A stretch of DNA of 64,000 nucleotides from the NCBI GenBank assembly GCA_017519975.1, contig JAFWRM010000047.1, forward strand, positions 62,001 through 126,000, in the 5' to 3' direction. The stretch is from Oscillospiraceae bacterium. GTDB lineage: Bacteria > Bacillota > Clostridia > Oscillospirales > Oscillospiraceae. Of this stretch, positions 8,879 through 57,653 are shown piece after piece. The translations under genes and the position numbers were made by a program. Numbering within the stretch: position 1 is the first letter of the stretch; the number at the start of each line of letters is the position of its first letter. The notes under the pieces were generated by a model. The model had not been told where the DNA came from, made no database searches, and saw only the letters and a program-made list of their open reading frames with translations.

Positions 8879-8884
8879 CGAACA

Positions 8885-9043
8885 GGCAGATCCACCGTTC
8901 GAGCTTCAGCTTCGCAGGGCTTGAAGCTGCGTTGGATCATGCCTTGCTTTCGACAAGATCTGTTGGACCATCGCATGGTGTCTCCACCATTTTGCGGCAG
9001 CAGCCCGTATCCCTGCGGTAGCCTTGCCTACCGGATATCTTAC
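8885..9043 (-). ncRNA. M-box (ykoK) magnesium riboswitch aptamer
   Basis: The minus-strand leader contains the M-box core in order: GGTAGGCAAGGCTACC, then GGGCTGCTGCCGCAAAATGG, then GGAGACACCATGCGATGGTCC, followed by a long paired arm and the terminator. M-box RNAs fold around Mg2+ and stop transcription of Mg2+ importers. The placement upstream of mgtE fits. Boundaries are approximate and no covariance search was run. Confidence 0.85.
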
Positions 9044-37659: not shown

Positions 37660-38145
37660 ATGGCTTTGTTTCAACGGAAAGAACCTACCACCCCCAGCGG
37701 GAAGGCGCGGCAGTCTCTGCTCGGGATGATCGCCCGCCTCGGCTGCTGCGCGTATCTGATCTACACCGTCGTAACGCTGTTCCGGCAGTCCTCCGCCGAT
37801 ACGGGCGGAGTTCCGCAGCCCATTGCCATCATCCTGGCGGTCGTCATGGGCGTAGCGGCGCTGTTCTTTTCCGCCATTACGCTGAAGCGGTTCTTCATCG
37901 GACTGAAGAATGAAGACTACAGCATGCACAAGTATTATGCGGAGGATCTGGCCAAGCTGGGCCTGCGGATGAATGAGTTCGGCGAGTACGTGCCCATTGA
38001 GGCCCCGGAGGACGAAGGCGCCGATGAGGAAGTGGAGCCGGCGCAGGAAGAGGGATCCGACGCGGAACAGGACGAAGAATTTCCGTCGGAAGAGGAGCCT
38101 GCCGAAGAAGAGCCTGAGGAAGAGGACCTCGGCGAAACCGAATAA
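37660..38145 (+). CDS. Small membrane protein with acidic tail, function unknown
   Basis: A 161-residue protein: basic N-terminus, two predicted membrane segments (about 22-42 and 55-78), then a cytoplasmic region and a tail from about 115 that is almost all Glu, Asp, Pro and Ala. I recognise no family. GAAGGAG lies nine bases before ATG 37660. The downstream hairpin and rlmD follow on the same strand. Confidence 0.75.
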   Translation: MALFQRKEPTTPSGKARQSLLGMIARLGCCAYLIYTVVTLFRQSSADTGGVPQPIAIILAVVMGVAALFFSAITLKRFFIGLKNEDYSMHKYYAEDLAKLGLRMNEFGEYVPIEAPEDEGADEEVEPAQEEGSDAEQDEEFPSEEEPAEEEPEEEDLGETE

Positions 38146-38150
38146 TGCAG

Positions 38151-38187
38151 AAACATCCATGTCTCGACTCTTCAGGCATGGATGTTT
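38151..38187 (+). terminator. Hairpin between the membrane protein gene and rlmD
   Basis: An 11-bp stem (AAACATCCATG and complement) with a 15-base loop, followed by GTTT. It starts five bases after the stop codon, so it is either a terminator or a partial attenuator of rlmD. Confidence 0.6.
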
Positions 38188-38210
38188 GTTTAAGGAGAAA
38201 CGGTGACAGC

Positions 38211-39575
38211 ATGAAAAAGAACGACATTCTGCGAGGAACGATCACTGGTTACACTTCGGAGGGGCAGGGCGTATGCCGGCTGGAGGGCCGCGCCGTATTC
38301 GTGAAAAACGCGCTGGCGGGGGAAGAGGCGGACGTGCGGATCCTGAAGGCGTCAAATACGGCGGTATACGGGAAGATCGAAAAACTGATAAGCCCATCCC
38401 CGGAAAGATGCGAACCGGCGTGCGTCAGCGCCGCGTCCTGCGGTGGCTGTGCTCTGATGCACATGTCGTACGCGGAGGAACTGCGGATGAAGCAGGCCAG
38501 AGTGGACGACGCTCTGCGCAGGATCGGCGGATTGGATCTGAAAACGTCGTGCATCCACGGCAGCGGTCAGCAGCTTCGTTACCGGAACAAGGCGATCTAC
38601 AACGTCGGGACGCGGAACGGTGAAGCGGTCACTGGTTTCTACCGGCGCCATACGCACGAGGTCGTTCCCTGCCGGGAGTGCCTCATCCAGGCGCCGTATG
38701 CCGATAAGGCGGCCGCGGTCACCCGGCAATGGATGGAACGCTTCCGCGTGCCTGCTTATGATGAGCGGACGGGGGAGGGACTGGTGCGAAGGGTCTTTGC
38801 CCGGTACGCCTTCGGAACGGGCCAGGGGCAGGCCGTGCTTGTAACGGCGAAGGAGGAAGTGCCCCATCTTGAGAACTGGACGGAAATGATCCGGGAGGAA
38901 TGTCCGGAATCGCGCAGCGTCGTGCTGAACGTGAACGGCACCCGTGGCAATACGGTGCTGGGCGGTCGGTTCCGCACGCTCTGGGGGTCGGATACGATCG
39001 AGGAGATCATCTGCGGGCTGCGTTTCCGTCTGTCACCGCGCAGCTTCTGTCAGATCAACATCCCGCAGGCACAGCGCCTGTATGAAAAGACACTGGAATT
39101 TGCCGGTCTCAGCGGGGCGGAAACGGCCCTTGACCTGTACTGCGGAACGGGAACCATCAGCCTCTGCCTGGCTGCGCAGGCGGGTCGGGTCATCGGCGCG
39201 GAGATCGTGCCGGAAGCGGTGGAAGACGCCAGAAGGAACGCGGCTGAAAACGGTGTAAACAACGCGGAGTTCATCTGCGCGGACGCCGGACAGGCGGCGG
39301 CCTGGCTGAGGGAGCGGGGAACTCAGGCGGATGTCGCGGTGGTGGATCCGCCCAGAAAGGGGCTGGCGCCTGACGTGATCGAAACACTCGCCGGCATGGG
39401 ACCTCACCGTATTGTGTACGTTTCCTGTGACCCTGGAACGCTGGCGCGGGATCTGAAGCATTTTGAAGGACTGGGATACCGCGCGGAGCAGGCTGAGGCG
39501 TTCGACATGTTTCCCAGAACAAGTCACGTGGAGACAGTAGTATTGATGACGAGGACCGGCACCGGAAACGGCTGA
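38211..39575 (+). CDS. rlmD: 23S rRNA (uracil-5-)-methyltransferase, RlmD/RumA family
   Basis: A 454-residue SAM-dependent m5U RNA methyltransferase. An N-terminal TRAM domain (about 1-60) precedes an iron-sulphur motif CEPACVSAASCGGC (about 68). The methyltransferase part has FCQINIPQAQRLYEKTLE, LDLYCGTGTISL (SAM site, about 308), VVDPPRKGL (about 378) and the catalytic Cys in YVSCDPGTLARDL (about 402). AAGGAG precedes ATG 38211 by 13 bases, a long distance. It is the last host gene before the AT-rich cargo. Confidence 0.93.
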   Translation: MKKNDILRGTITGYTSEGQGVCRLEGRAVFVKNALAGEEADVRILKASNTAVYGKIEKLISPSPERCEPACVSAASCGGCALMHMSYAEELRMKQARVDDALRRIGGLDLKTSCIHGSGQQLRYRNKAIYNVGTRNGEAVTGFYRRHTHEVVPCRECLIQAPYADKAAAVTRQWMERFRVPAYDERTGEGLVRRVFARYAFGTGQGQAVLVTAKEEVPHLENWTEMIREECPESRSVVLNVNGTRGNTVLGGRFRTLWGSDTIEEIICGLRFRLSPRSFCQINIPQAQRLYEKTLEFAGLSGAETALDLYCGTGTISLCLAAQAGRVIGAEIVPEAVEDARRNAAENGVNNAEFICADAGQAAAWLRERGTQADVAVVDPPRKGLAPDVIETLAGMGPHRIVYVSCDPGTLARDLKHFEGLGYRAEQAEAFDMFPRTSHVETVVLMTRTGTGNG

Positions 39576-39844: not shown

Positions 39845-39902
39845 AATGCTACTGTTATGACTGTGTTTTGCCAGAGATCATGACTTTGAATTGAGGTGTA
39901 CG

Positions 39903-40139
39903 ATGAGTATTGCAAATGAAATTAAGGACATTCGGCAGAGTTGCTTTTTCAGTCAGAACTCTTTTGCCGAAGAACTCGGTGTTTCATACTCTACTGTTAA
40001 TCGTTGGGAAACCGGGAAGACCGTTCCCAATTGCTCAATGATGAGAAAAATAGTAGATTTTTGTAAGAAGCACGATCTGGATTACCAGAAAGTCGATGAG
40101 GCTTGGAAGGAGATAAAAAATGGCGTTGACCCATATTGA
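39903..40139 (+). CDS. XRE-type helix-turn-helix regulator of the restriction-modification locus
   Basis: A 78-residue protein with an HTH fold: FFSQNSFAEELGVSYSTVNRWETGKTVPN (about 14-42). ATG 39903 follows GAGGTG. Its end overlaps the methyltransferase start by 20 bases, so translation is coupled. It is probably a controller of the modification gene or of the whole locus. Confidence 0.85.
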   Translation: MSIANEIKDIRQSCFFSQNSFAEELGVSYSTVNRWETGKTVPNCSMMRKIVDFCKKHDLDYQKVDEAWKEIKNGVDPY

Positions 40140-41289
40140 CTGTTTCAGCGGACCAGGTGGAATATGTACTGGTTTACACGCTGCCGGTTTTGAAACGCTG
40201 ATTGCTATAGAATTCATAAAAAGCTGTGTTGATACGTACTCTGCTAATCACCCAGAGGTTCATGTTATCCATTCAGATATCCGCGATGTAACTGCAGAGC
40301 AGATTTTACCTTATATTCCCGAAAACGGTGTCGATTTAGTAACCTCAGGAATGCCGTGTGAAACATTCTCTACTGCGGGAAATTCATCTCGTGCCGCGTA
40401 TGACGATAGGCAGTTCTTGTTCCGAGAAGGAATTAGAATTGCAAAAATAGCAAATGCGAGAATGATTCTATTTGAGAATGTTCCAATGATTACAACTAAG
40501 CGTATTGCGAAAGATTCCAAAAAGCTGGTTCTTGATGTGCTGAAGGAGGAACTGGCAGAAGCGGGATACAAAAACTACAAACAGTTCATCATTGATGCTG
40601 AAAAATATGGAGTTCCTCAAAAAAGAAAGCGTTTCTTTATCTTGGCATCGAAAGAACCTACAGATGAAATCTCAGCACCGAAACCAACAACATCAGTAGA
40701 TGTTACCGTCGAAGATGCCTTTTGCGACATTCCTCCCGTAGAAGCAAACACTTGGACAGAGAATCCGAACTATCTTCCTGGTAAGTCATCTGCGTACACG
40801 AGACTAATGCAAGATGATCATTTCTGGAGAAGAGAAACCAAGGAACACAAACTCCTGAATCATCTTCCGATGAACCATAGAGCTTATATTATTGAGCGCT
40901 TTCATATACTCCGGCAGGGAGAAGGACTCAAAGGTCTTTTTGCTCGGCTTGAGCCAGATGAGTTAGAGTCTTTGCAAAAAAGGAAAGTTGTTCCAAAGGT
41001 TGTCTATGTAAAGAGAAACTACCGGCTGCGATGGGATGAGGCAAGCCCAACGGTAACCAGTCATGCTTTGGATGAATTTGTACATCCAGAACAGGACAGA
41101 GCCCTTACAGTTCGTGAGTGCGCACGGTTGCAGAGTTTCCCGGATTCATATGATTTTGTCGGGGGTCCCTACTTAGTTGCCCACGACGATCGTTCTCAAC
41201 AAGATAAGTATGAGCAAATAGGTGACGCCGTACCGCCTTTAGTTGCCTACGCCTGGGGAATGCACATCAGAGAAATACTACATAAATAA
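40120..41289 (+). CDS. DNA (cytosine-5) methyltransferase
   Basis: A 389-residue m5C methylase. Motif I is HIDCFSGPGGICTGL (4-18). Motif IV is SGMPCETFS with catalytic Cys79, and PCE takes the place of the usual PCQ. Motif VI is FENVP (about 122), motif VIII QKRKRFFIL (about 167), motif IX RECARLQSFPDSYDF (about 331) and motif X QIGDAVPPLVA. Low GC marks it as foreign. It faces the endonuclease gene across a shared terminator, a usual arrangement for a type II system. Confidence 0.93.
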   Translation: MALTHIDCFSGPGGICTGLHAAGFETLIAIEFIKSCVDTYSANHPEVHVIHSDIRDVTAEQILPYIPENGVDLVTSGMPCETFSTAGNSSRAAYDDRQFLFREGIRIAKIANARMILFENVPMITTKRIAKDSKKLVLDVLKEELAEAGYKNYKQFIIDAEKYGVPQKRKRFFILASKEPTDEISAPKPTTSVDVTVEDAFCDIPPVEANTWTENPNYLPGKSSAYTRLMQDDHFWRRETKEHKLLNHLPMNHRAYIIERFHILRQGEGLKGLFARLEPDELESLQKRKVVPKVVYVKRNYRLRWDEASPTVTSHALDEFVHPEQDRALTVRECARLQSFPDSYDFVGGPYLVAHDDRSQQDKYEQIGDAVPPLVAYAWGMHIREILHK

Positions 41290-41291
41290 GG

Positions 41292-41323
41292 AATCGGAGT
41301 CAGTGTGATTACTGGCTCCGATT
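41292..41323. terminator. Bidirectional terminator between methylase and endonuclease genes
   Basis: AATCGGAG-CAG and complement around eight bases, flanked by TTATTATTA. Confidence 0.85.
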
Positions 41324-41327
41324 ATTA

Positions 41328-42221
41328 TTAATCAAATAGATGTTCAGATTCGTGGAAGTACTCGCCGAATTCTTTGACGTGAATCTTGGGGAATCTATCA
41401 TTTAGCTCTCTGTATTTTTCAGGCATATCAAGATAGTATGCACGTGTAATCTGAGCCACAAAGAGTTGATAATTCATCCACTGGTTTGGGACGCAGGTAA
41501 TATCAATAGACATATTCTTCCCCAGATTAGTTTCTCCTATGCATGTAAGAAGGCAAAAGAAGCGGCCCACTCCAAATGCACCATCCAGTATCCTTTGCTG
41601 TGCCCACACCTCAACGACCCGCTCACGTGTGGAGGTTTTCACAGGAATATGTAATTTGGGTCTACCTGGTCCAAGATTAAAGATAAAATCTGTTGGTAAG
41701 GAAATGGATTCTCCATCCAATTCAACCGCATTCATCTGCGTGGATGGGTTTATCCCAAGATGTCTTGCATAAAGATGCCCAATCAGTTTTTCAAAATATG
41801 CGCCAGCATTATTCTTTAGTCCCGGAAGCGTGTCAGCACAAGTGCAGTAATTCATCGCAATTACATAAAGTGCAGTTGTTATATCTCTGGCAGGCTGATT
41901 TGCAATTGTTTGAGAAGAAACATTTTCCCAAAACACATCCACTTTAGAATTGCCATCTGCATCTGTAGAGATGCCCTCGTTATATAGATCAATATTGACC
42001 GGGCGAGACTTCTTTCCATTATTGTGCGAAAAAAGGACATAGTTTTTCCCTCGAGCAGTTGCATTACTGGTTAAGGGAAGTCTCTGCATCGCACTCGCTT
42101 CAACTTGACATAGGTCATTGATTTCTTTAAACAATGCCGTTATACCGGGATCAAGTGGTGATGCGCTGAACAGTCGTTTCATGGCATCAAACTTGGATTG
42201 TATGGTTCTTCCATCTGGCAT
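41328..42221 (-). CDS. Probable type II restriction endonuclease
   Basis: A 297-residue protein. The stretch SLPTDFIFNLGPGRPKLHIPVKTSTRERVVEVWAQQR (split here only for reading: PTDFIF, then IPVKTSTRERV) resembles a PD-(D/E)xK nuclease core, with Asp in a beta strand and Lys in VKT. It ends with HVKEFGEYFHE. The position facing a cytosine methylase supports the call. It is the last gene of a minus-strand run that begins with the ABC-3C genes, 35 bases after the small HTH gene. ATG 42221 follows GTGAGG. Confidence 0.7.
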   Translation of the reverse strand: MPDGRTIQSKFDAMKRLFSASPLDPGITALFKEINDLCQVEASAMQRLPLTSNATARGKNYVLFSHNNGKKSRPVNIDLYNEGISTDADGNSKVDVFWENVSSQTIANQPARDITTALYVIAMNYCTCADTLPGLKNNAGAYFEKLIGHLYARHLGINPSTQMNAVELDGESISLPTDFIFNLGPGRPKLHIPVKTSTRERVVEVWAQQRILDGAFGVGRFFCLLTCIGETNLGKNMSIDITCVPNQWMNYQLFVAQITRAYYLDMPEKYRELNDRFPKIHVKEFGEYFHESEHLFD

Positions 42222-42256
42222 TTTGATATACCTCACTTTCAGCCTTAATCACATTA

Positions 42257-42460
42257 TTAATCGTCTACGGTTTCAAGAATATCTTCGATGTGGCAGTTCA
42301 GCGTTTCACAGATTTTTAGAAGCACATCCGTTGTAATATTGGCCCCCTTGCCGAGTTTCGCAATGGACGCAGCGCTAACGCCGGCCGCCTCTTTTAAATC
42401 CATCTTTGTCATGTTCTTGTCGATCAACAGTTTCCACAGTTTGTTGTAACTGATTCGCAT
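42257..42460 (-). CDS. Small HTH regulator upstream of the endonuclease
   Basis: A 67-residue XRE/Cro-type protein: MTKMDLKEAAGVSAASIAKLGKG contains the helix-turn-helix and the end reads LNCHIEDILETVDD, as in YozG-like regulators. GGAGG precedes ATG 42460. It lies between the ATPase gene (20-base gap) and the endonuclease gene, so it may delay or limit nuclease expression. Confidence 0.88.
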   Translation of the reverse strand: MRISYNKLWKLLIDKNMTKMDLKEAAGVSAASIAKLGKGANITTDVLLKICETLNCHIEDILETVDD

Positions 42461-42480
42461 TTTGATACCTCCGTGTATGC

Positions 42481-43083
42481 TTATTTCACATCGTTCAAGA
42501 ATCCATATCTGCCGGCTTCGAGTCCCTTGGTAAAGGTGATGACATTTGCGCCGGAACCTTCATAATCAAGAGCGGGAATATGCATCATATTTTCAAGGAT
42601 AATTATCTGCCCGTCGCTCTGGTGATTGATGAAATACTTGAAAAGCGCAGTTCTCATGCTTTCCGGCGCAGCGTCCGTTACGCCCTGGTCAAGTCCAAGC
42701 AACGGCGTATCGATTACCACGAAGCCGGGATTGTATTTTGCGTACGCCTCCATGTACCGACGGAATGTGAGTGCAACGACAGTATTGAGATAAGAGCAGT
42801 ACCCCTGCCCGTGAATATCTGCCTTTTTGTGACCGTTTACTTCAACATCAAAATCCTTCATGTTGAACCGTGCCGTGGTTAGATTGTCATAGGCACATTC
42901 GATCAAGGCGTCTTTCAGCATCTGATCGATCCGCTCTTGGAATTCATCGCCAAAGTATTCTTTGGGGTGATACTCGATTTGTGTTTCGTCCTCGCTGGGA
43001 AGCTCTCTCAAATCCGTTTCCCAACTGGAAGCAAAATCATCGATAACGCTGAGTTCCTGTTTTATCTGAATGAATGCGCGGTA
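42481..43083 (-). CDS. SMC/ABC-type ATPase, C-terminal half (after a frameshift)
   Basis: The frame that continues the upstream ATPase after a one-base shift. It reads YRAFIQIKQELSVIDDFASS and then the internal ATG at 43011. It carries an ABC-signature-like region SYLNTVVALTFRRYM and the Walker B PGFVVIDTPLLGLDQG. No ribosome binding site precedes ATG 43011. Together with 43062-44288 it would make one protein of about 600 residues. Either the gene is broken in this strain, the base is a sequencing error, or frameshifting occurs. Confidence 0.7.
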   Translation of the reverse strand, partial: YRAFIQIKQELSVIDDFASSWETDLRELPSEDETQIEYHPKEYFGDEFQERIDQMLKDALIECAYDNLTTARFNMKDFDVEVNGHKKADIHGQGYCSYLNTVVALTFRRYMEAYAKYNPGFVVIDTPLLGLDQGVTDAAPESMRTALFKYFINHQSDGQIIILENMMHIPALDYEGSGANVITFTKGLEAGRYGFLNDVK

Positions 43084-44288
43084 ACGTTCAAGGATTCCCG
43101 CAATGCATCTGCCTTCGGCTGCAGCTCGTTTTCGATCATGGCTTCGATGCTGTCGCGCTTTGCCTGAAGCTCCTTCAGAGCCGCCTCGATTTCAGCCTTT
43201 TCCGCTTCGAGGTCTTTTTCTGTTTCGGCAAGACCGTCCATCTGAAGGGTTATTCTGTCAAGTTCAGCCTGTGCAGAATCAATATATGATTTCTTGTCCC
43301 GAGAAGGCAGTTTGCCATCGCAGAACGGGCACACCTGGTTCTTCGGGACGTGTCCCATCTCGACTTCGCCGTTAACGATAAAAGAAAGCCTCTTCACATC
43401 AGAAACATACTGCGTTCTGAGGGCTGCGTAGCGTGACTTCAGAAGGTCGCATTCGGCGGCGCGACTTTGTAACCGCAGAATCTGTCCGAGCAGTTCACGG
43501 CTCTGATCAACGGCCGCGGAGATTTGAGTCTCCGTGCTTTGAAGGCTGTTAATGATGTCCTGCATCGTCTGTTCAACATCGACACCATCAAAGGCACTCA
43601 AACTTTCAAGCAACCCTTTGCGCTTATCCGTAACAGCCTGTATTTTTCTGTTGACATATTCTTCGACTGCCTTTTTCCGGGCGACGCGTATTTCTTTTTT
43701 TGTTTGAGCATCCGCTTCGCCGAAATCCTGTCCGAACAGCAGATACAGCAACGCCGAAAGCAAGGCGGTACGATCCGTGGCCTGTTCCGGCTCGATGATG
43801 GATTTCTCCTTTGCAATATCGGCTACATGGAACAACAGCACATGAAGGAATGTACGCCAGGTCAGCCGCTTCTTTTCAAAATTCTTATTCTTTATAACGA
43901 AGTGTTCACCCTCTATCCCGATTGAGTCCAGAAGTAGATCACTCAATATGGGGAGAGGGTCTTTTTTGTTTGTAGGCTTTAAATCGTATTTACCGCTTTC
44001 AAAGCCGGGAACGTCGGTGACAACATCGACCTGGTTTTTGCCCAAAACACGCGTGATTGTAATGTTGCCCTTGCCCGTATGAAGGGAGATTTCAATGGTA
44101 TCATATCCGAGGCTTTCATCAAAAGGCTTCGCCTTACTGCCAAAGCAGAAATCGATGCACTTGATGATGCAGGTCTTGCCGGTATTCGATCTCCCTTGAA
44201 TGATGTTCAATCCGGGGCGGAGGTCGATTACAGAATCGGTTTTGCCGCTGCCTTTAGCGACCACCTTGGTAATATAGAATTCTCCCAT
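43062..44288 (-). CDS. SMC/ABC-type ATPase of an ABC-3C system, N-terminal half
   Basis: A 408-residue product with Walker A GLNIIQGRSNTGKTCIIKCID (about 29-49). A long coiled coil (about 190-390) is interrupted by a zinc hook CPFCDGKLP (about 320), as in Rad50-like ATPases. It stops at 43062 in AHSFR-stop, while the next frame carries the missing Walker B and signature regions. It starts two bases after the middle-component stop. In ABC-three-component systems this ATPase senses an intruder or DNA state and controls the effector; that role is inferred from the family. Confidence 0.82.
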   Translation of the reverse strand: MGEFYITKVVAKGSGKTDSVIDLRPGLNIIQGRSNTGKTCIIKCIDFCFGSKAKPFDESLGYDTIEISLHTGKGNITITRVLGKNQVDVVTDVPGFESGKYDLKPTNKKDPLPILSDLLLDSIGIEGEHFVIKNKNFEKKRLTWRTFLHVLLFHVADIAKEKSIIEPEQATDRTALLSALLYLLFGQDFGEADAQTKKEIRVARKKAVEEYVNRKIQAVTDKRKGLLESLSAFDGVDVEQTMQDIINSLQSTETQISAAVDQSRELLGQILRLQSRAAECDLLKSRYAALRTQYVSDVKRLSFIVNGEVEMGHVPKNQVCPFCDGKLPSRDKKSYIDSAQAELDRITLQMDGLAETEKDLEAEKAEIEAALKELQAKRDSIEAMIENELQPKADALRESLNVTAHSFR

Positions 44289-44290
44289 CG

Positions 44291-44737
44291 CTACCTCCTT
44301 AACGACTGCACGGCTTTGCCGCTGATTTCTTTCAAAATTGCCGAGTCACTTTTCCGGGCATATTTTTTATGTACGGTTTCTGCGATAGCTAAATACTGAT
44401 CTTTGTAATCGGATTCAAGGGTTCCGATATACTTGCGTCCGGCTGCGGTCAGCTTGTACAGGAAACCTCCTTCAGTTCGATTGACGGCGATAAGCCCATC
44501 CAGTACAAACATCTTGATGCCTTCCGAACATACAGCCCGCTTGGAGGATAGTTCGCTGAAGCTGTAACTGTTATCTCCGTGCAGGTTCCGATCAGATACT
44601 TCAAAATCTTTTCCGTATATGGTCATAAAGTCGTATGCTGAAAGGCGGTCAATTGTCATACCACCGGAACGAATGATGGAGAGAACAAGCATCGCACGTA
44701 GCCCGGTTTCAAACGGAGTGTTGAAAAGATCATTCAT
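44291..44737 (-). CDS. ABC-3C middle component (winged-helix, MC2-like)
   Basis: A 148-residue protein starting MNDLFNTPFETGLRAMLVLS, with DRLSAYDFMTIYGKDF and a winged-helix-like region EGIKMFVLDGLIAVNRTEGGFLYKLTAAGRKYIG. The pattern fits the small middle component that sits between effector and ATPase in ABC-3C systems. It overlaps the end of the upstream gene by eight bases and is followed directly by the ATPase gene. Confidence 0.78.
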   Translation of the reverse strand: MNDLFNTPFETGLRAMLVLSIIRSGGMTIDRLSAYDFMTIYGKDFEVSDRNLHGDNSYSFSELSSKRAVCSEGIKMFVLDGLIAVNRTEGGFLYKLTAAGRKYIGTLESDYKDQYLAIAETVHKKYARKSDSAILKEISGKAVQSLRR

Positions 44738-45443
44738 CGATATTCACCCACGATTTAATCGTCCCGTCATTCACCAGGATATGGCAGATGCCTTTCTTTT
44801 CAAGATTTGCTATCAGACCGATTATGTTCATAAACGAGGATTTTGAAAGCGTAATGTTTGTAACCTTATCAAGTACTGCGAGGAGGCGGTCGTATCCGCT
44901 TGTGTGGCGATCATCATAGAGTGTGTCAGAAATGCCATCATAAGCATCCGTTTTTAGCGCCTGAAACTGTTTATCGCCGTCAGAAAAGACCTCACGCACC
45001 GAACGATGGACGCTTTCTGCGCTATAGTAGGCTTTGCGCTGTTCTGCAAAGTTTCTGCGAAGGGTGTTGGACAAGGTTCCTATTGTGTCTGGCGTCACGA
45101 CACCGTTGATTTTTTCTGCGTACACTTCGCACAGCGCGTTTACATACGGAAGCTCCTGCGGGGAAATACTGCTCTGCGGCGTAAGCTGAACCGGCAGTTT
45201 AACCTCTTCGGTTCCGAGGTAAATGATCCGGGTTGTGCTGTCATATCTGGTTGGCGTGAGGGGGACGAAGGGAACGCCGTTCTCGTCCTCGGTAGGAGAA
45301 CCTTGATTCTCAATAACTGTAACATTCAAATTCTCTACATGATCCGCATGAACCGAACGATCCCCATACTGATTCACTTGAGTAATCGATGCACCGGCAG
45401 ACGGGACTGCCGGAACAGATCCCTTTTGTATTTCATTTGCCAT
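44730..45443 (-). CDS. ABC-3C C-terminal-domain protein (CTD7-like) with NQYGD tag
   Basis: A 237-residue protein. The body from about residue 75 reads IIYLGTEEVKLPVQL, LPYVNALCEVYAEKINGV, YYSAESVHRSVREVFSDG, DAYDGISDTLYDD and KKGICHILVNDGTIKSWV, which fits the CTD7 group of ABC-three-component systems. Classical members carry an effector domain in front; here there is only a short N-terminal tail with VNQYGDRSVHADHVENLNV (about 22-40). The same tag ends the protein encoded just upstream, so the effector may be split off. ATG 45443 follows GGAGG by eight bases. Confidence 0.75.
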   Translation of the reverse strand: MANEIQKGSVPAVPSAGASITQVNQYGDRSVHADHVENLNVTVIENQGSPTEDENGVPFVPLTPTRYDSTTRIIYLGTEEVKLPVQLTPQSSISPQELPYVNALCEVYAEKINGVVTPDTIGTLSNTLRRNFAEQRKAYYSAESVHRSVREVFSDGDKQFQALKTDAYDGISDTLYDDRHTSGYDRLLAVLDKVTNITLSKSSFMNIIGLIANLEKKGICHILVNDGTIKSWVNIDE

Positions 45444-45457
45444 ACGCATTACCTCCG

Positions 45458-46468
45458 TTACAGTTTCAAATTCTCGACGTGATCAATGTGAACGGGATGA
45501 TCCCCATATTGATTTACTATGGTTTGATGTACAACTTTTTTATCCACCGTTGCGGCACCTGATGGATCTTCGCCATCCACGACCTCCGCTTCGGCACTAT
45601 CGGACTCATCTTCGGATGAATCCGCCTTTTTATTATTCCGCCGTATTTGTTCGGCGAGCTGATGTTCAGCGGCTCCGAAAACTTCTGCCATTATTCGACC
45701 GGTGTTTAAAATGGCATTATCAATTACTTCACGATCAGTTGGCTCCTCTTGCGTAGCATCTGCAGGATTTAGTAAAGAAGCGTCTGTAGTAGGAACGGAG
45801 AGGTCTGTATCAATGTTTATTGCTGAAATCACGCTCCCGATATCGCTATTGAATTTCCATTCGGTGTTAGAACCTGCCTGAGAATACCAAGCAGTAAAAG
45901 TTGCTTTGCCGGATTCGCAATCAGGACAATTGCATATGACGTAATTTATTACACTCAATAGAAACGGCAACAGCATAATCTGCTGTGCTTCATGTAGCTG
46001 TTTTACCGGAATACAATCGGAATGGCTGACCGCTATTAAGGTTTCGCCATCGACAGACGTATCTTTCTGCATTGTTTCAATCAAAGCTGAAACCAACCAC
46101 ACGCACTTATCCTTATTCAAATATCTCTCTATAAACCCTGCTGTCCGCTTGAGGAGGCAGGGCTTATTTGTTTGATACAGATTTTGAAATGCGGAGCGTG
46201 TGGCTGCTTTTGTAAAAGGAACATAGTCGCCGGTGCTGTCATCGCATTTTTTAAAGTTGGTCGCGCACTTGTTCAGAGTCGTCCCTGCAACCGAAGAGAA
46301 GTCTTCACCTGTGACTATGTAGATAAGTCCGGCGTAAACACCGGGAATCGTTAAACCGTCTGATCCGCCGTTCAGCTTATTTCTCGCCTTCTGGCGCGGC
46401 TTTCTTGCTTCGAGCAGCAGGTCGAAGAGAATACCTCCGCAAAGGTGTGGCACCGGATTTGGGGTCAT
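45458..46468 (-). CDS. First gene of the ABC-3C operon, unknown helical protein with C-terminal NQYGD tag
   Basis: A 336-residue protein I do not recognise. It is mainly helical, with a cysteine pair CNCPDCESG (about 190) that could bind zinc. A charged Glu/Asp/Ser-rich linker (about 285-312) leads to VNQYGDHPVHIDHVENLKL at the C-terminus, matching the N-terminal tag of the next protein. I infer that it is the separate effector or sensor of the system, docked through the tags. AAGGAGG lies eight bases before ATG 46468. Confidence 0.65.
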   Translation of the reverse strand: MTPNPVPHLCGGILFDLLLEARKPRQKARNKLNGGSDGLTIPGVYAGLIYIVTGEDFSSVAGTTLNKCATNFKKCDDSTGDYVPFTKAATRSAFQNLYQTNKPCLLKRTAGFIERYLNKDKCVWLVSALIETMQKDTSVDGETLIAVSHSDCIPVKQLHEAQQIMLLPFLLSVINYVICNCPDCESGKATFTAWYSQAGSNTEWKFNSDIGSVISAINIDTDLSVPTTDASLLNPADATQEEPTDREVIDNAILNTGRIMAEVFGAAEHQLAEQIRRNNKKADSSEDESDSAEAEVVDGEDPSGAATVDKKVVHQTIVNQYGDHPVHIDHVENLKL

Positions 46469-46488
46469 CTCTATAACCTCCTTCAAAA

Positions 46489-46625: not shown

Positions 46626-46643
46626 AGTATAACACAAAAGTGT
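46626..46643 (-). promoter_or_regulatory. Promoter and inverted-repeat operator of the ABC-3C operon
   Basis: Minus-strand extended -10 TGTTATACT (TATACT at 46626-46631) is overlapped upstream by ACACaaaaGTGT (46632-46643). The -35 is poor. The arrangement suggests repression. The transcript would carry a leader of about 150 bases. Confidence 0.5.
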
Positions 46644-46731
46644 GAAAAATTCTACCCCTTTTACAGAATTCGTTTCTGCGGATGTGAAATTCCCCTCATC
46701 AATTATGAAAATAACATTCGGAGGCAATATC

Positions 46732-52386: not shown

Positions 52387-53719
52387 ATATCAGACATACG
52401 CGACGCGGTTCATCCTGTCGCACCCCATAGCGGCGGTTCTGCTTGAAATGGGTCTCGGCAAGAGCGTGATCACGCTGACGGCGCTTTACGACCTGTGTCT
52501 CGACAGCTTCCTTATACGGAAAGTGCTTGTGATCGCCCCGCTGCGGGTGGCGCGGGACACCTGGCCTTCGGAAATAAGGAAATGGGATCACCTGGACGGA
52601 CTGACGTATTCCGTCGCGGTCGGAACGGAGGCAGAACGGAAAGCGGCGCTCATGCAGAAGGCTTCCGTGTACATCATCAACCGCGAGAACGTGGACTGGC
52701 TCGTGAACAAAAGCGGTCTGCCGTTCGATTTCGACATGATCGTCATCGACGAGCTTTCGTCCTTCAAATCGTGGCAGGCGAAGCGGTTCAAAAGCCTTCT
52801 GAAGGTCAGGCCGCACGTAAAGCGCGTTGTGGGACTGACGGGAACGCCGTCGTCGAACGGACTCATGGATCTGTGGGCGCAGTTCCGTCTGCTCGATCTC
52901 GGAAAACGGCTCGGACGGTACATCACGCATTACCGGAACGCCTTCTTCACCCCGGACAAGCGGAACGGCGAGGTCGTGTTCAGCTACAAGCCTCTCCCCG
53001 GCGCGGAGGAACGGATATACGCGCAGATATCGGATATAACGATCAGCATGAAATCCTGTGACTACCTCAAACTGCCGGAATGCGTCATAAACGCCGTCCC
53101 CGTTTATATGAACGAACAGGAACAGGCCGTATACGACACTTTCAAAGAGGATATGACGGCAAAAATCAGAGGCAAGGAGATCGACGCAGCCAACGCCGCC
53201 GTTCTCGCCGGCAAGCTGCTCCAGATGGCGAACGGCGCGGTCTATGACGAGGATAAAAACAGCCATTACATCCATGACCGCAAACTCGACGCCCTGGAGG
53301 ATCTCATTGAAGGCGCGAACGGCAAGCCCGTGCTGATCGCCTACTGGTATCAGCATGACGCGGAGCGGATAAAGGCGAGATTCCCTGTGAGGGAGATAAA
53401 GACATCGAAGGATATCGATGACTGGAATGCGGGAAGGATTTCTGCGGCGGTCATCCACCCGGCCTCGGCGGGACACGGTCTGAATCTCCAGTCCGGCGGT
53501 TCCACGCTCATATGGTTCGGTCTCACATGGAGCCTTGAGCTGTATCAGCAGACGAACGCCCGCCTTCACCGCCAGGGACAGAAGGATACGGTCATTATCC
53601 ATCATATAATCACCGCCGGCACGATCGACGAGGACGTCATGAAGGCGCTCCGCAAAAAGGAGCGGACACAGAACGCGCTCATCGACGCAGTCAAGGCGAA
53701 TCTGGGGGATTCTGTATGA
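52367..53719 (+). CDS. Phage SNF2-type DNA helicase
   Basis: A 450-residue superfamily 2 helicase. Q-like PHEYQTYATRFIL, Walker A LEMGLGKSVIT (about 28), motif Ia VIAPLRVARDTW, motif II VIDELSSFK (DExx variant DELS, about 126), motif III GLTGTPSSN, and motifs V-VI HPASAGHGLNLQSGG and QTNARLHRQGQKD are all present. It is paired with a VRR-NUC nuclease, a frequent phage combination. Confidence 0.92.
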   Translation: MRYEPHEYQTYATRFILSHPIAAVLLEMGLGKSVITLTALYDLCLDSFLIRKVLVIAPLRVARDTWPSEIRKWDHLDGLTYSVAVGTEAERKAALMQKASVYIINRENVDWLVNKSGLPFDFDMIVIDELSSFKSWQAKRFKSLLKVRPHVKRVVGLTGTPSSNGLMDLWAQFRLLDLGKRLGRYITHYRNAFFTPDKRNGEVVFSYKPLPGAEERIYAQISDITISMKSCDYLKLPECVINAVPVYMNEQEQAVYDTFKEDMTAKIRGKEIDAANAAVLAGKLLQMANGAVYDEDKNSHYIHDRKLDALEDLIEGANGKPVLIAYWYQHDAERIKARFPVREIKTSKDIDDWNAGRISAAVIHPASAGHGLNLQSGGSTLIWFGLTWSLELYQQTNARLHRQGQKDTVIIHHIITAGTIDEDVMKALRKKERTQNALIDAVKANLGDSV

Positions 53720-55057: not shown

Positions 55058-55606
55058 GTGCCGACAAAATCCAACAACACAGGCGGGCGCGGAGGCGCGA
55101 GACCCGGTGCGGGAAGGAAGAAAACCGCTGTCAAAGAGAAAGCCGAAAACGGCAATCCCGGCGGCAGACGGCTTGAAGTCCTGGATATTCCCGAAGTCGA
55201 GGGTGTCGATATGCCGAAGCCCCATGATTTTCTCTCAGCCGAACAGCGGGACGGAAGTCAGCTGCAGGCGGAAGAGATCTATACCGAGACCTGGGAGTGG
55301 CTGAAGAAGATCGGCTGCGCCTCAAAAGTCTCGCCCCAACTTCTGGAGCGGTACGCCATGTGTTCGGCGCGGTGGATACAGTGCGAGGAGATGACCAACA
55401 AGATGGGCTTCCTCTCCAAGCATCCCACTACGCAGAAACCGATACCGTCTCCATTCATCAATATCGGCATCAACTACATGAACCAGGCCGTGCGGCTGTG
55501 GAACGAGATCTTCCAGATCGTGAAGGAAAACTGCTCCACGGACTACGGCGAGGTCTCCCCGCAGGACGACCTCATGGAAAGATTGCTTCGGGCAAGGAAA
55601 GGATGA
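55058..55606 (+). CDS. terS: Small terminase subunit, P27 family
   Basis: A 182-residue protein starting with a Gly/Arg/Lys-rich DNA-contacting tail (GGRGGARPGAGRKKTAV). A helical region follows, with ETWEWLKKIGCASKVSPQLLERYAMCSARWIQCEE and SPFINIGINYMNQAVRLWNEIFQIV as in P27-like small terminases. It recognises phage DNA for packaging. The start is GTG 55058 after GGAGG. The large subunit lies 5.7 kb away, with the methylation module in between. Confidence 0.9.
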   Translation: MPTKSNNTGGRGGARPGAGRKKTAVKEKAENGNPGGRRLEVLDIPEVEGVDMPKPHDFLSAEQRDGSQLQAEEIYTETWEWLKKIGCASKVSPQLLERYAMCSARWIQCEEMTNKMGFLSKHPTTQKPIPSPFINIGINYMNQAVRLWNEIFQIVKENCSTDYGEVSPQDDLMERLLRARKG

Positions 55607-55611
55607 AGATC

Positions 55612-56400
55612 ATGTTTGAAAAAGTAAATCCCTCGCACCCCGACAAGGTGGCCGACCGCATTGCCGGTGCGCTTGTCGACCTGGCTTATACAAAAGAGGA
55701 AAAGCCGAAGATCGCCGTGGAGGTTCTGATCGGCCACGGAGTCTGCAATATCATCGCGGAGACCTCTGTCCATATTACGGATGAAGAGGCGGCTGCCATC
55801 GTTCACCGCATTGCCGGAGAGCGTATTCTGTCGAATTATGTCGAAGTCCCGCAGGATGCGCATCTCGCCGACAACCAGGCGGACGGGATCCACTGCGGCG
55901 ACAACGGCATCTTTAAGGGGATGCCCGTCACAGCGGAACAGCGCCGGCTGACGGACATCGCAAAGTTCCTTTACGGCGTATACGGCTGCGACGGCAAGTA
56001 CATCCTTGACTGCGACAGGCTCATCATCTGCCAGAGCAATGCGGAAAGCGGCCATCTGCGCGAGACCTACCCGGATGCCGAGGTCAATCCCCTGGGCGAC
56101 TGGACCGGCGGCACGGACGTGGATACCGGCGCGACGAACAGAATGCTCGGCTCGGACATGGCGGATTCCGTTACGGGCGGCGGTCTGCACGGCAAGGATC
56201 TGTCGAAAGCCGACGTCAGCGTGAATGTGTACGCATGGCTGAAAGCACAGGAAACGAGACAGCCCGTGGAACTGTGCTGCGCCATCGGCGACGATACCGT
56301 GGACGGCAGACCATATGCGGAAATCGTCGAAATCTGTCGGAACTTCATCGACAGCGTCGGCGGCTTTGAGAAGTTCGCGGAATGGGGGCTGGTGCGATGA
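55612..56400 (+). CDS. metK: Short phage-encoded S-adenosylmethionine synthetase homologue
   Basis: A 262-residue relative of MetK, which makes SAM from ATP and methionine. Cellular enzymes have about 390 residues. Recognisable parts are NPSHPDKVADRIAGALVD at the N-terminus, the stretch GHGVCNIIAETSVHITD, and GGGLHGKDLSKADVSVNVYAW, the phosphate-binding and catalytic segment. ATG 55612 has the better spacing from AAGGAAAGG than ATG 55603. It overlaps the ParB-methylase gene by four bases and should supply SAM to the two methylases that follow. Confidence 0.82.
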   Translation: MFEKVNPSHPDKVADRIAGALVDLAYTKEEKPKIAVEVLIGHGVCNIIAETSVHITDEEAAAIVHRIAGERILSNYVEVPQDAHLADNQADGIHCGDNGIFKGMPVTAEQRRLTDIAKFLYGVYGCDGKYILDCDRLIICQSNAESGHLRETYPDAEVNPLGDWTGGTDVDTGATNRMLGSDMADSVTGGGLHGKDLSKADVSVNVYAWLKAQETRQPVELCCAIGDDTVDGRPYAEIVEICRNFIDSVGGFEKFAEWGLVR

Positions 56401-57653
56401 AAACGACCACGGAAATGAAACTCGTCCCCATAGCGAAACTCGTCCCTTATGTGAATAACGCAAGAACGCACTCCCCGGAGCAGATCCTCAAACTGAGGTC
56501 TTCCCTGCGGGAGTTCGGTTTTATAAATCCCGTAATCATCGACCGCGAGTACGGCGTCATCGCCGGACACGGACGCATCCTTGCAGCGAAGGAGGAAGGC
56601 ATCACGGAGGTGCCGTGCGTCTTCGCCGACCACCTTACCGAAGCCCAGAAGAAAGCGTACATCATCGCGGACAACCGCATGGCAATGGACGCGGGATGGG
56701 ACGAGGAGCTTCTGCGCGTGGAGATCGAGGCACTGCAGGCGGCGGACTTCGACCCGCTGCTCACCGGCTTCGATGAAGCGGAACTCGCCGGCCTGTTTTC
56801 GGACGGCAGTGATAAAGATGTAAAGGATGACGGCTTCGACCTCACCGCCGCCCTTGAGAAGGCTTCCTTCGTGGAGCGCGGTGACGTGTGGACGGTCGGA
56901 AAGCACCGCCTCGTCTGCGGCGACGCGACAAGCGCGGATGACGTCGCTCTGCTCATGAACGGCAAGAGGGCAAACCTTCTGCTGACCGATCCTCCCTACG
57001 GAGTCTCCTTCAAAAGCTCGGACGGGCTGACCATTCAGAACGACAGCCTCAAAAACGAGGAGTTCTACACCTTCCTGCTGTCGGCGTTCAAAGCCGCGGC
57101 GGATCACATGGAGAAAGGCGGTGCGGCGTATGTGTTCCACGCCGACACCGAGGGGCTGAATTTCCGCAGGGCTTTCACCGATGCGGGCTTCCATCTCGCC
57201 GGGTGCTGCATCTGGGTCAAGGACAGTCTTGTCCTCGGACGCTCGGATTATCAGTGGCAGCATGAACCCGTGCTGTACGGCTTCCTTCAGAACGGAAAGC
57301 ACGCCTGGTACTCCGACCGCAAGCAGACGACGGTATGGCAGTTCGCCAAGCCGAAACACAACGAAAACCATCCGACCTCCAAGCCGCTCGACCTTCTCGG
57401 CTATCCCATCGGCAACTCCACCCAGGAAAATGCCGTCATACTGGATACCTTCGGCGGCAGCGGCAGCACGATGATGGCGTGTGAGCAGATGAACCGCGTC
57501 TGCCATATGATGGAACTCGATGAAAAATACGCATCCGTTATCCTACGCAGGGCTGTCGAAAACGGCATTGCCCCGGAGGATATTTTTGTGGAGCGCGGCG
57601 GTGAAACGATCCCGTACTCCGACCTTGTAAAGGAGGTCGCTGCCGATGAGTGA
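56397..57653 (+). CDS. ParB-domain and adenine/cytosine-N DNA methyltransferase fusion
   Basis: A 418-residue protein. An N-terminal ParB-like domain (VPYVNNARTHSPEQILKLRSS, GFINPVIIDREYGVIAGHGRILAAKE; about 12-100) is fused to a beta-class methylase with LLTDPPYGVSF (motif IV DPPY, about 196) and VILDTFGGSGSTMMACEQM (motif I, about 346). HPTSKPLDLLG lies just before. It should methylate adenine N6 or cytosine N4 in phage DNA. Coupled to metK upstream and overlapping the m5C methylase downstream by eight bases. Confidence 0.92.
   Translation: MKTTTEMKLVPIAKLVPYVNNARTHSPEQILKLRSSLREFGFINPVIIDREYGVIAGHGRILAAKEEGITEVPCVFADHLTEAQKKAYIIADNRMAMDAGWDEELLRVEIEALQAADFDPLLTGFDEAELAGLFSDGSDKDVKDDGFDLTAALEKASFVERGDVWTVGKHRLVCGDATSADDVALLMNGKRANLLLTDPPYGVSFKSSDGLTIQNDSLKNEEFYTFLLSAFKAAADHMEKGGAAYVFHADTEGLNFRRAFTDAGFHLAGCCIWVKDSLVLGRSDYQWQHEPVLYGFLQNGKHAWYSDRKQTTVWQFAKPKHNENHPTSKPLDLLGYPIGNSTQENAVILDTFGGSGSTMMACEQMNRVCHMMELDEKYASVILRRAVENGIAPEDIFVERGGETIPYSDLVKEVAADE

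What the first reader, a model, noticed from the sequence alone, without database searches (positions are those of the whole stretch)
41328..46468. ABC-three-component system fused in one operon with a restriction endonuclease
Six genes run on the minus strand with gaps of 2 to 35 bases or overlaps: tagged protein, CTD7-like protein, middle component, zinc-hook ATPase, HTH protein, endonuclease. The methylase partner of the endonuclease lies opposite with its own HTH gene. Linking an ABC-3C conflict system to restriction in one transcript suggests a two-layer defence in which nuclease action and the ATPase switch are co-regulated. ABC-3C components are recognised from published families; the linkage is read from this sequence.
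Basis: partly seen in the sequence, partly recalled or inferred. Interest (0 to 1): 0.88.

Follow-up and report, generated by a model that had tools for sequence, protein, structure and literature searches.

The report
Mix-and-match prophage defence cassette
A viral genome resting in a bacterium's chromosome carries, at its end, a row of defence genes that includes a DNA-damage-type sensor and a DNA-cutting enzyme, joined through one small regulator gene; related viruses carry the same joint with other sensors and other cutters, although in this genome the sensor's motor gene appears to be broken.

Summary
Minus-strand genes 46486-41328 are a tagged helical protein, LmuA CTD6 (not CTD7), LmuC/MC2, LmuB, a 67-aa HTH and a type II REase; a C5 methylase is convergent behind a terminator-like hairpin. 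ABC-3C is Lamassu. LmuB is broken by a one-base frameshift near 43086, so the Lamassu half is probably inactive here.

The linkage recurs. Another genome (L022) has the same order. Of 47 non-redundant Lamassu loci with this HTH, 36 have an R-M or BREX gene among the next three genes, from many unrelated families. A closely related prophage (L077) matches the window until the HTH stop codon, then carries a different gene; another contig (L139) carries the window's REase and methylase without Lamassu. The junction is thus mapped from both sides. The N-terminal part of the tagged protein is swapped too. In related prophages the HTH also follows a RecD-like helicase or an apparent NACHT protein.

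But the same prophage slot holds R-M about as often without Lamassu (19 of 27) as with it (3 of 5). Co-regulation is plausible; functional coupling is unproven. Verdict: a real, modular prophage cassette, a new variant of known systems.

The parts
45458..46486 (-). Tagged N-domain gene (342 aa as listed; likely ATG start at 46468, 336 aa): helical domain of unknown function, residues about 7-217, linker, C-terminal tag
   Evidence: no Pfam/PADLOC/NCBIfam function; homologues L021-L023, L135 fused to an NTPase, L281 beside a helicase; AF2 pLDDT 61, no PDB match at E 0.001
45461..45535 (-). C-terminal tag VVHQTIVNQYGDHPVHIDHVENLKL; two predicted strands at low confidence
   Evidence: shared by six distinct split-LmuA loci (window, L021, L022, L023, L069, L077)
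44730..45449 (-). LmuA C-terminal domain protein (CTD6) without an N-terminal effector domain
   Evidence: PF20282 3.3e-34; LmuA PDLC03857 6.8e-69; the six best PDB fold matches are Lamassu entries, though weak, E 0.17 to 1.0
45321..45383 (-). N-terminal tag TQVNQYGDRSVHADHVENLNV of the CTD6 protein, similar to the tag of the upstream gene
   Evidence: disordered in the monomer model
44291..44737 (-). LmuC / middle component MC2
   Evidence: PF20288 1.8e-42; LmuC 1.6e-50
43062..44288 (-). LmuB (Rad50/SMC-like ATPase), N-terminal part, Walker A and CxxC motif
   Evidence: PDLC03867 positions 1-403, 6.3e-150
42481..43011 (-). LmuB C-terminal part, out of frame with the N-part (single-base gap near 43086 relative to L077)
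   Evidence: PDLC03867 positions 434-603, 1.2e-76
42257..42460 (-). Small Cro/C1-type HTH (67 aa), the constant junction gene
   Evidence: PF13443 4.9e-19; in 37 of 48 LmuB clusters; the match to L077 ends at its stop codon
41328..42236 (-). Type II restriction endonuclease, homologous to PDB 6ekr
   Evidence: PDLC03502 1.1e-23; 6ekr_A 9.9e-24
41292..41323 (+). Terminator-like hairpin between the convergent methylase and endonuclease genes
40120..41289 (+). C5-cytosine DNA methyltransferase, convergent partner of the endonuclease
   Evidence: PF00145 7.4e-57; MTase_II 1.4e-107
39891..40139 (+). HTH_3 regulator gene overlapping the methylase start
   Evidence: PF01381 8.9e-10; also covered by the L022 match down to 39903
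46626..46644 (-). Candidate operon promoter/operator: -10-like TATACT beside an imperfect palindrome CACACTTTTGTG (CACAGTTCTGTG in L077), seen by eye
   Evidence: sequences printed; lead only
38145..39575 (+). Flanking rlmD/rumA-type RNA uracil methyltransferase gene; a gene of this family flanks the cassette in seven related loci
   Evidence: PF05958 in the window protein and in L024; the other six by BLAST cluster: L027, L028, L030, L055, L060, L085
46642..64000 (+). Prophage backbone (helicase/primase, HNH, small and large terminase)
   Evidence: PHROGs on ten of its ORFs; 95% and 86% identical to contig L077 in 52000-49613 and 48802-46625

Best explanation
The locus is one version of a modular anti-phage cassette at the end of a temperate phage. 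A small HTH gene is the fixed joint. Upstream sits an exchangeable ATPase machine, here a split Lamassu: LmuB, LmuC, an LmuA CTD protein, and a separate N-domain protein that probably docks through a shared NQYGD tag. Downstream sits an exchangeable restriction gene whose methylase lies convergent, probably under its own control. Because the R gene follows the HTH closely on the same strand, R and the ATPase machine are probably made from one message under HTH control, while M is made independently. R-M cuts unmodified incoming DNA. A working Lamassu copy would sense DNA ends or abnormal DNA and switch on its N-domain effector when restriction is not enough. Shown here: gene content, recurrence, breakpoints, swaps, frameshift. 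Inferred: one transcript, HTH regulation, tag docking, order of action. In this genome LmuB is frameshifted, so probably only R-M works.
For: Identity to L077 is 93% from within the tagged gene through LmuB and ends at the HTH stop (42257), then the downstream genes differ; L139 shares window 42222-40099 (REase plus MTase) with no LmuB and no HTH of this family in its 11.4 kb. Of 34 alignable close pairs with this HTH, 21 lose DNA identity within 35 nt of the HTH end (my count; pairs share members). HTH in 37 of 48 clusters; R-M/BREX within three genes in 36 of 47; gap of 35 nt or less in 31 of 43, overlap in 13; upstream control 0 of 80 genes with an R-M model. Eleven type II REase families, one of them by a weak match, plus types I, IIG, III and BREX; 25 changes of downstream type on the LmuB tree. 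HTH and LmuB distances correlate, rho 0.41, 0 of 999 permutations as high. The same N-domains occur with Lamassu, with an apparent NACHT and with a RecD-like helicase, followed by the HTH.
Against: No RNA or phenotype data. The slot control shows R-M in 19 of 27 same-family slots without Lamassu, so adjacency alone does not show cooperation. The HTH family occurs in 76 of 147 genomes of the order, often ahead of R-M genes without Lamassu, so it may be an R-M gene that Lamassu merely abuts. 11 of 47 HTH loci have no recognised R-M behind. Of the 34 close pairs, 13 do not break at the HTH end: 9 share the next gene or the whole R-M, 1 breaks 48 nt beyond, 1 inside the HTH, 2 inside LmuB. Downstream type is also partly inherited (25 changes against 30.7 in shuffles). 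Six distant Lamassu loci have no annotated HTH behind LmuB, one of them has type I R-M nearby. LmuB is broken here.
Confidence: 0.6

Rival explanations
1. Cargo hotspot without cooperation: the end of this prophage family is simply a landing site for defence genes. R-M is the commonest cargo, Lamassu another, and tight packing reflects compact phage genomes; the two systems act independently. This can be true together with the modular reading above and differs from it only in function.
For: R-M in 19 of 27 slots without Lamassu versus 3 of 5 with it; Druantia, SNF2-PLD, DUF4268 and recombinase genes also occur behind the HTH; R-M also free on small plasmids and in L139.
Against: The HTH is retained through many R-M swaps and first genes of many families are placed on the same strand within 35 nt or overlapping, which random cargo would not require; 0 of 80 upstream genes match an R-M model.
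Confidence: 0.5
2. Break relay: restriction turns sequence and methylation recognition into DNA ends, and LmuB, a Rad50/SMC-like end sensor, reads those ends and fires the N-domain effector. Any cutter can therefore be plugged in.
For: Recognised partners are mostly DNA-cutting or DNA-modifying systems of unrelated specificity; Lamassu DNA-end sensing is stated in PMC12904381 (passages) and end or hairpin sensing is discussed in PMC10586767 (section 10 read); RloC, a PrrC homologue, responds to DNA breaks (PMC12707154, passages).
Against: No direct test; the slot control shows that R-M does not need Lamassu there; this Lamassu is broken.
Confidence: 0.25
3. Guardian model as in PrrC or PARIS: the ATPase module senses inhibition or loss of the linked R-M and then aborts infection.
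For: Precedent in PMC12707154 passages (PrrC inside a type I locus, PARIS); genes closely packed on one strand.
Against: R-M partners are unrelated in sequence and swapped, so a direct protein guard is hard to keep.
Confidence: 0.08
4. Decaying remnant, for this genome only: the Lamassu part is a dead passenger and only R-M is maintained. Compatible with the modular reading.
For: Frameshift; L013, L032, L066/L098, L068 and L071 also have LmuB in pieces.
Against: L077, L021, L022 and L023 have LmuB in one long ORF. Explains this genome, not the recurrence. A sequencing or assembly error is not excluded.
Confidence: 0.55

Closest known systems
Lamassu / ABC-3C / DdmABC
   Same: LmuB with hook motif, MC2 LmuC, LmuA C-terminal domain; order A-C-B
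   Different: LmuA split into an N-domain gene and a CTD6 gene with shared tags; HTH and R-M at the operon end; no known enzymatic effector; LmuB frameshifted here
Type II R-M of the 6ekr kind (that 6ekr is Kpn2I is recalled)
   Same: REase homologous to 6ekr; convergent REase and C5 methylase as on the plasmid L140
   Different: R gene placed behind a Lamassu-HTH row instead of standing alone
PrrC / RloC coupled to type I R-M
   Same: a second, abortive layer encoded with R-M (PMC12707154 passages)
   Different: no anticodon nuclease found; three-part Lamassu complex; many R-M types
RptR-R-M-DarTG island (PMC12255303 passages)
   Same: small DNA-binding regulator shared by R-M and another defence system in one island
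   Different: there the regulator is the first gene and was shown to repress the promoter; here the HTH is the fifth gene and untested

Membership tests
Lamassu (ABC-3C) | SMC/Rad50-like LmuB family | tested here: met
   PDLC03867 6.3e-150 and 1.2e-76 for the two parts
Lamassu (ABC-3C) | intact LmuB reading frame | tested here: not met
   single-base gap near 43086 relative to L077
Lamassu (ABC-3C) | middle component LmuC/MC | tested here: met
   MC2 1.8e-42
Lamassu (ABC-3C) | LmuA C-terminal domain | tested here: met
   CTD6 3.3e-34; weak fold matches to Lamassu entries
Lamassu (ABC-3C) | effector domain fused to the CTD in one LmuA | tested here: not met
   split genes in window, L021-L023, L077
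Lamassu (ABC-3C) | recognised effector enzyme | tested here: inconclusive
   no family or fold match for the N-domain; model of low confidence
   CTD6 is the only CTD family hit
Type II restriction-modification | REase plus methylase pair | tested here: met
   same pair in L022 and L139, distant pair in L140
Type II restriction-modification | shared recognition site | not testable with these tools
   needs an assay; 6ekr homology gives only a guess
R-M control (C) protein | small HTH that regulates R | tested here: inconclusive
   HTH at 42257-42460 has no Control_protein hit, but genes of the family often precede R-M genes
PrrC/RloC-type R-M guardian | anticodon nuclease effector | tested here: not met
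   no such domain named
PrrC/RloC-type R-M guardian | activation by R-M inhibition or DNA breaks | not testable with these tools
   needs experiment

The most novel reading that the evidence does not exclude
An HTH-anchored combinatorial immune cassette: interchangeable N-domains (effectors or adaptors) plug into interchangeable ATPase machines (Lamassu via a short tag, NACHT by fusion, RecD-like helicase via a C-terminal region), and all are placed ahead of the same HTH and an interchangeable cutter. The cutter's DNA ends are the signal that the ATPase reads, so restriction is the sensor front-end of an abortive system.
Probability: 0.2. Interest if true: 0.88.

Novelty: new variant of a known kind. 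Interest (0 to 1): 0.62.

Why it matters
It gives a natural series of closely related prophages in which the ATPase core and HTH are constant while the effector domain and the restriction enzyme vary. That lets one ask directly whether restriction and an SMC-type abortive system cooperate, what the HTH controls, and what the unassigned N-domains do, since the same N-domains occur with three ATPase types. It also warns that adjacency in prophage defence slots is not evidence of cooperation unless a slot control is made.

Tried and rejected
Tried without result: fold search of the N-domain protein (model pLDDT 61, no PDB match at E 0.001); PDB sequence search of the N-domain profile, the CTD6 protein, and the NACHT-like and Rad50-like upstream proteins (no hit); conserved operator across the five closest operons (a palindrome by eye in two only); REase relatives in 290 other genomes of the class (none); N-domain relatives in the same set (one weak match, judged chance); REase in phage records (none).

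Rejected: CTD7 (CTD6 found); VanU for the HTH (89.8 bits, cutoff 150); programmed frameshift in LmuB (L077 and other relatives are in one frame); HTH as a gene of the R-M module only (the match with L077 ends at the HTH stop and L139 lacks it), although the wider family also precedes R-M alone, so it is best called a joint; the claim that R-M enrichment behind Lamassu proves cooperation (slot control).

Rows dropped and biases: the two scans are seeded by peptide patterns, so they see part of the relatives; loci with LmuB ORF under 450 aa left out of the cluster counts; loci with under 300 nt or under 1.4 kb downstream left out; near-duplicates collapsed. Loci L010-L016, found first, are not in those counts: an HTH of this family follows LmuB in L011, L013, L014 and L015; a transposase gene follows in L012; the record of L010 ends at LmuB; L016 was not examined for this. 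Of 29 HTH neighbour loci other than the window, 5 with a longer, fused HTH frame were not given. One mis-chained LmuA was removed; of the 47 loci, 41 contributed 81 upstream genes and 80 were scanned. In one search the bins for W/L077 and L061/L043 were out of register (different HTH start codons) and are not used. R-M class labels are mine, spread over BLAST clusters from family hits. The upstream BLAST control (1 of 177) used a database drawn from downstream genes, so one search is the less biased one. In one search the profiles were likewise built from Lamassu-linked R-M genes, duplicates were removed only when a 2-kb stretch was identical, and 3 of the 19 R-M calls (L155, L203, L281) are BLAST-only. 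The plasmid annotation used is incomplete by its own description.
Full report
What is in the sequence. The minus-strand row is real. Pfam and PADLOC name them: CTD6 (3.3e-34) and LmuA; MC2 (1.8e-42) and LmuC; LmuB (6.3e-150 and 1.2e-76 for the two halves); HTH_26; REase_II. This is Lamassu, which PMC10586767 (passages, and sections 9 and 10 read) treats as including ABC-3C and DdmABC. The endonuclease matches PDB 6ekr at 9.9e-24 (that 6ekr is Kpn2I is recalled). The methylase is a C5 enzyme, convergent, with its own HTH_3 gene and a terminator-like hairpin between M and R.

The break. Aligned to L077, which has LmuB in one 602-aa frame, the window has one single-base gap near 43086. Whether it is a mutation or an assembly error cannot be told here. 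LmuB in pieces occurs elsewhere (L013, L032, L066/L098, L068, L071).

Where it sits. 46.6-64 kb is prophage (terminases, helicase/primase, HNH; ten ORFs scanned). GC drops from about 0.60 to 0.39-0.51 over 39.5-47 kb. The other flank is an rlmD/rumA-type gene; a gene of that family flanks the cassette in seven related loci (Pfam on L024; the others by BLAST cluster). So the cassette lies at the end of a prophage, probably the attachment end; the attachment sites were not mapped.

Recurrence. One scan of the species-genome collection gave 58 loci and one of viral contigs gave 30. After clustering LmuB at 90%, 53 clusters remain; 48 have at least 300 nt downstream and 37 of those carry the HTH directly behind LmuB. 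By LmuB cluster and downstream genes there are 69 non-redundant loci; 60 have 1.4 kb or more; 47 have the HTH; in 36 of 47 an R-M or BREX gene is among the next three genes. The 11 others carry a serine recombinase (3), SNF2-PLD (3), Druantia DruA, DUF4268, HhH-GPD plus unknown, or unknown genes (2). Without the HTH, 6 of 13 have R-M; four of these six (L033, L087, L088, L101) have a different small gene in its place, HTH_17 by Pfam in L033. The first gene behind the HTH is on the same strand in 43 of 47, within 35 nt in 31 of 43, overlapping in 13; these counts include first genes that are not R-M. A methylase is convergent within four genes in 24 of the 36. The R genes belong to unrelated families: nine PADLOC REase_II models in relatives (one, PDLC03530, only weakly), the window's own model, BstXI by Pfam, and type IIG, type I, type III and BREX. 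Upstream of the operon, 0 of 80 genes match an R-M model.

Breakpoints. Window and L077 share the backbone (95% and 86%), differ in the N-part of the tagged gene (46625-45664), share 45664-42257 at 93%, and the match ends at the HTH stop codon. L139 shares window 42222-40099, that is REase plus methylase, without LmuB or an HTH of this family. In one search, 34 pairs of loci with this HTH align well over LmuB; by my count identity ends within 35 nt of the HTH end in 21, further downstream in 10 (9 of these share the next gene or all of the R-M), inside the HTH in 1 and inside LmuB in 2; pairs share members and are not independent. In the group with the other small gene, 8 of 10 pairs end within 16 nt of that gene's end. 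Binned identity stays near the LmuB level through the HTH and then drops to chance in the eight pairs in register. L022 shares the whole order at 72% (window 45539-39903). On the LmuB tree the coarse downstream type needs 25 changes over 61 labelled tips, against 30.7 on average when labels are shuffled (as low in 0 of 200), so it is both inherited and often exchanged (quick tree with long branches). Nine LmuB clusters hold more than one downstream set.

Split LmuA and tags. In the window, L021, L022, L023 and L077 LmuA is two genes. The upstream protein ends in (V/I)HQT(I/V)VNQYGDHP(V/I)HI(D/N)HVENLKL and the CTD6 protein begins with a related VNQYGD tag; the pair is also present in L069. The upstream tag is two predicted strands at low confidence. 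Docking is inference. Three plasmid Lamassu loci (L141-L143) have a separate gene annotated restriction endonuclease in the same upstream position, beside a full-length LmuA gene, which mildly favours an effector role.

Beyond Lamassu. In the same prophage family, 32 non-redundant slots with 4 kb or more were read: LmuB in 5 (HTH in 4 of them), HTH without LmuB in 9, R-M alone in 11, nothing recognised in 7. In a wider set (any anchor, 2.5 kb or more) 20 loci, 16 after my manual collapse, have the HTH without LmuB; seven of the 16 have another module tightly upstream: a helicase with RecD similarity (tested on L281) plus a separate N-domain gene in L155, L158, L267 and L281; an apparent NACHT fused to an N-domain in L215 (and L135, another contig); a Rad50-like ATPase in L212 and L244. 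NACHT and Rad50-like are read by eye from sequence; no PDB match. The window's N-domain recurs with the helicase (L281, 38%, 2e-65) and with the NACHT (L135, 41%, 4e-50); the L077 N-domain recurs with both (L155, L267, L158, L215) and inside fused LmuA (L090). The downstream genes of L267 are an REase like that of L025/L091 and a C5 methylase.

The control that limits the claim. R-M occupies the slot in 19 of 27 loci without LmuB (16 by profile, 3 by BLAST only) and in 3 of 5 with it. The HTH family is in 76 of 147 genomes of the order; of the 30 loci fetched, about 1.5 kb each side, only the window's own has LmuB. Of 24 neighbour genes scanned, Pfam gives C5 methylase 5, N6_Mtase 4, D12 2, ResIII/HsdR 2, MvaI_BcnI 1 and YhcG nuclease 1, so up to 15 if these fall on different proteins. 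So R-M does not need Lamassu there. What remains in favour of coupling is the arrangement: same strand, short gaps, HTH kept through many swaps, methylase convergent. Six distant Lamassu loci on plasmids have no annotated HTH behind LmuB; one, L143, has type I R-M about 1.4 kb downstream.

Mechanism. Most likely: R and Lamassu are co-expressed under the HTH, M is separate, and the layers act in sequence. A relay in which restriction ends trigger LmuB fits published end sensing (PMC12904381 passages) but is untested. Precedents for R-M linked abortive systems are PrrC, RloC and PARIS (PMC12707154 passages); a small regulator shared by R-M and another defence system is RptR (PMC12255303 passages).

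Literature. The searches (listings only) showed no title or abstract describing Lamassu-HTH-R-M cassettes, tags or swaps; PMC12839542 and PMC10853773 do not use the word Lamassu in the text held. The primary ABC-3C paper (doi 10.1093/nar/gkaa726) and the Lamassu structure paper (PMC12663957) are not held; from memory the former's abstract says such ABC systems act independently or together with R-M, so the link as such may be in print.

Noticed in passing
L135:5998-8854: Viral contig in which the window's N-domain is fused to an apparent NACHT NTPase (by eye), followed by the same HTH and by N6-methylase-like genes (by eye).
   Followed up: partly
L281, L267, L158, L155: A 910-934 aa RecD-like helicase with a separate N-domain gene replaces Lamassu ahead of the HTH; its partner proteins share a C-terminal region of about 130 aa that may be the docking element.
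   Followed up: partly
L075:9992-12736: Lamassu and HTH directly followed by BrxA of a BREX system.
   Followed up: no
L018:13566-14684: PIN-domain gene (PIN_12) between the hsdM-like and hsdS genes behind Lamassu-HTH.
   Followed up: no
L023:12024-12689 and its BLAST cluster (15 members): A gene with a marginal HhH-GPD glycosylase match (L023, just under the Pfam cutoff) is often the first gene behind the HTH, mostly with a C5 methylase nearby.
   Followed up: no
L141-L143: Plasmid Lamassu loci with a gene annotated restriction endonuclease overlapping the start of LmuA.
   Followed up: partly
window 55297-59442: The prophage carries a SAM-synthetase-like ORF, a ParB/N4-N6 methylase-like ORF and a second C5 methylase-like ORF in a row (read by eye).
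   Followed up: no
window 8884-9042 (-): M-box magnesium riboswitch (Rfam, 112 bits).
   Followed up: no
window 53606-53693 (-): ARAGORN tRNA-Lys call inside and antisense to a phage helicase gene, possibly false.
   Followed up: no
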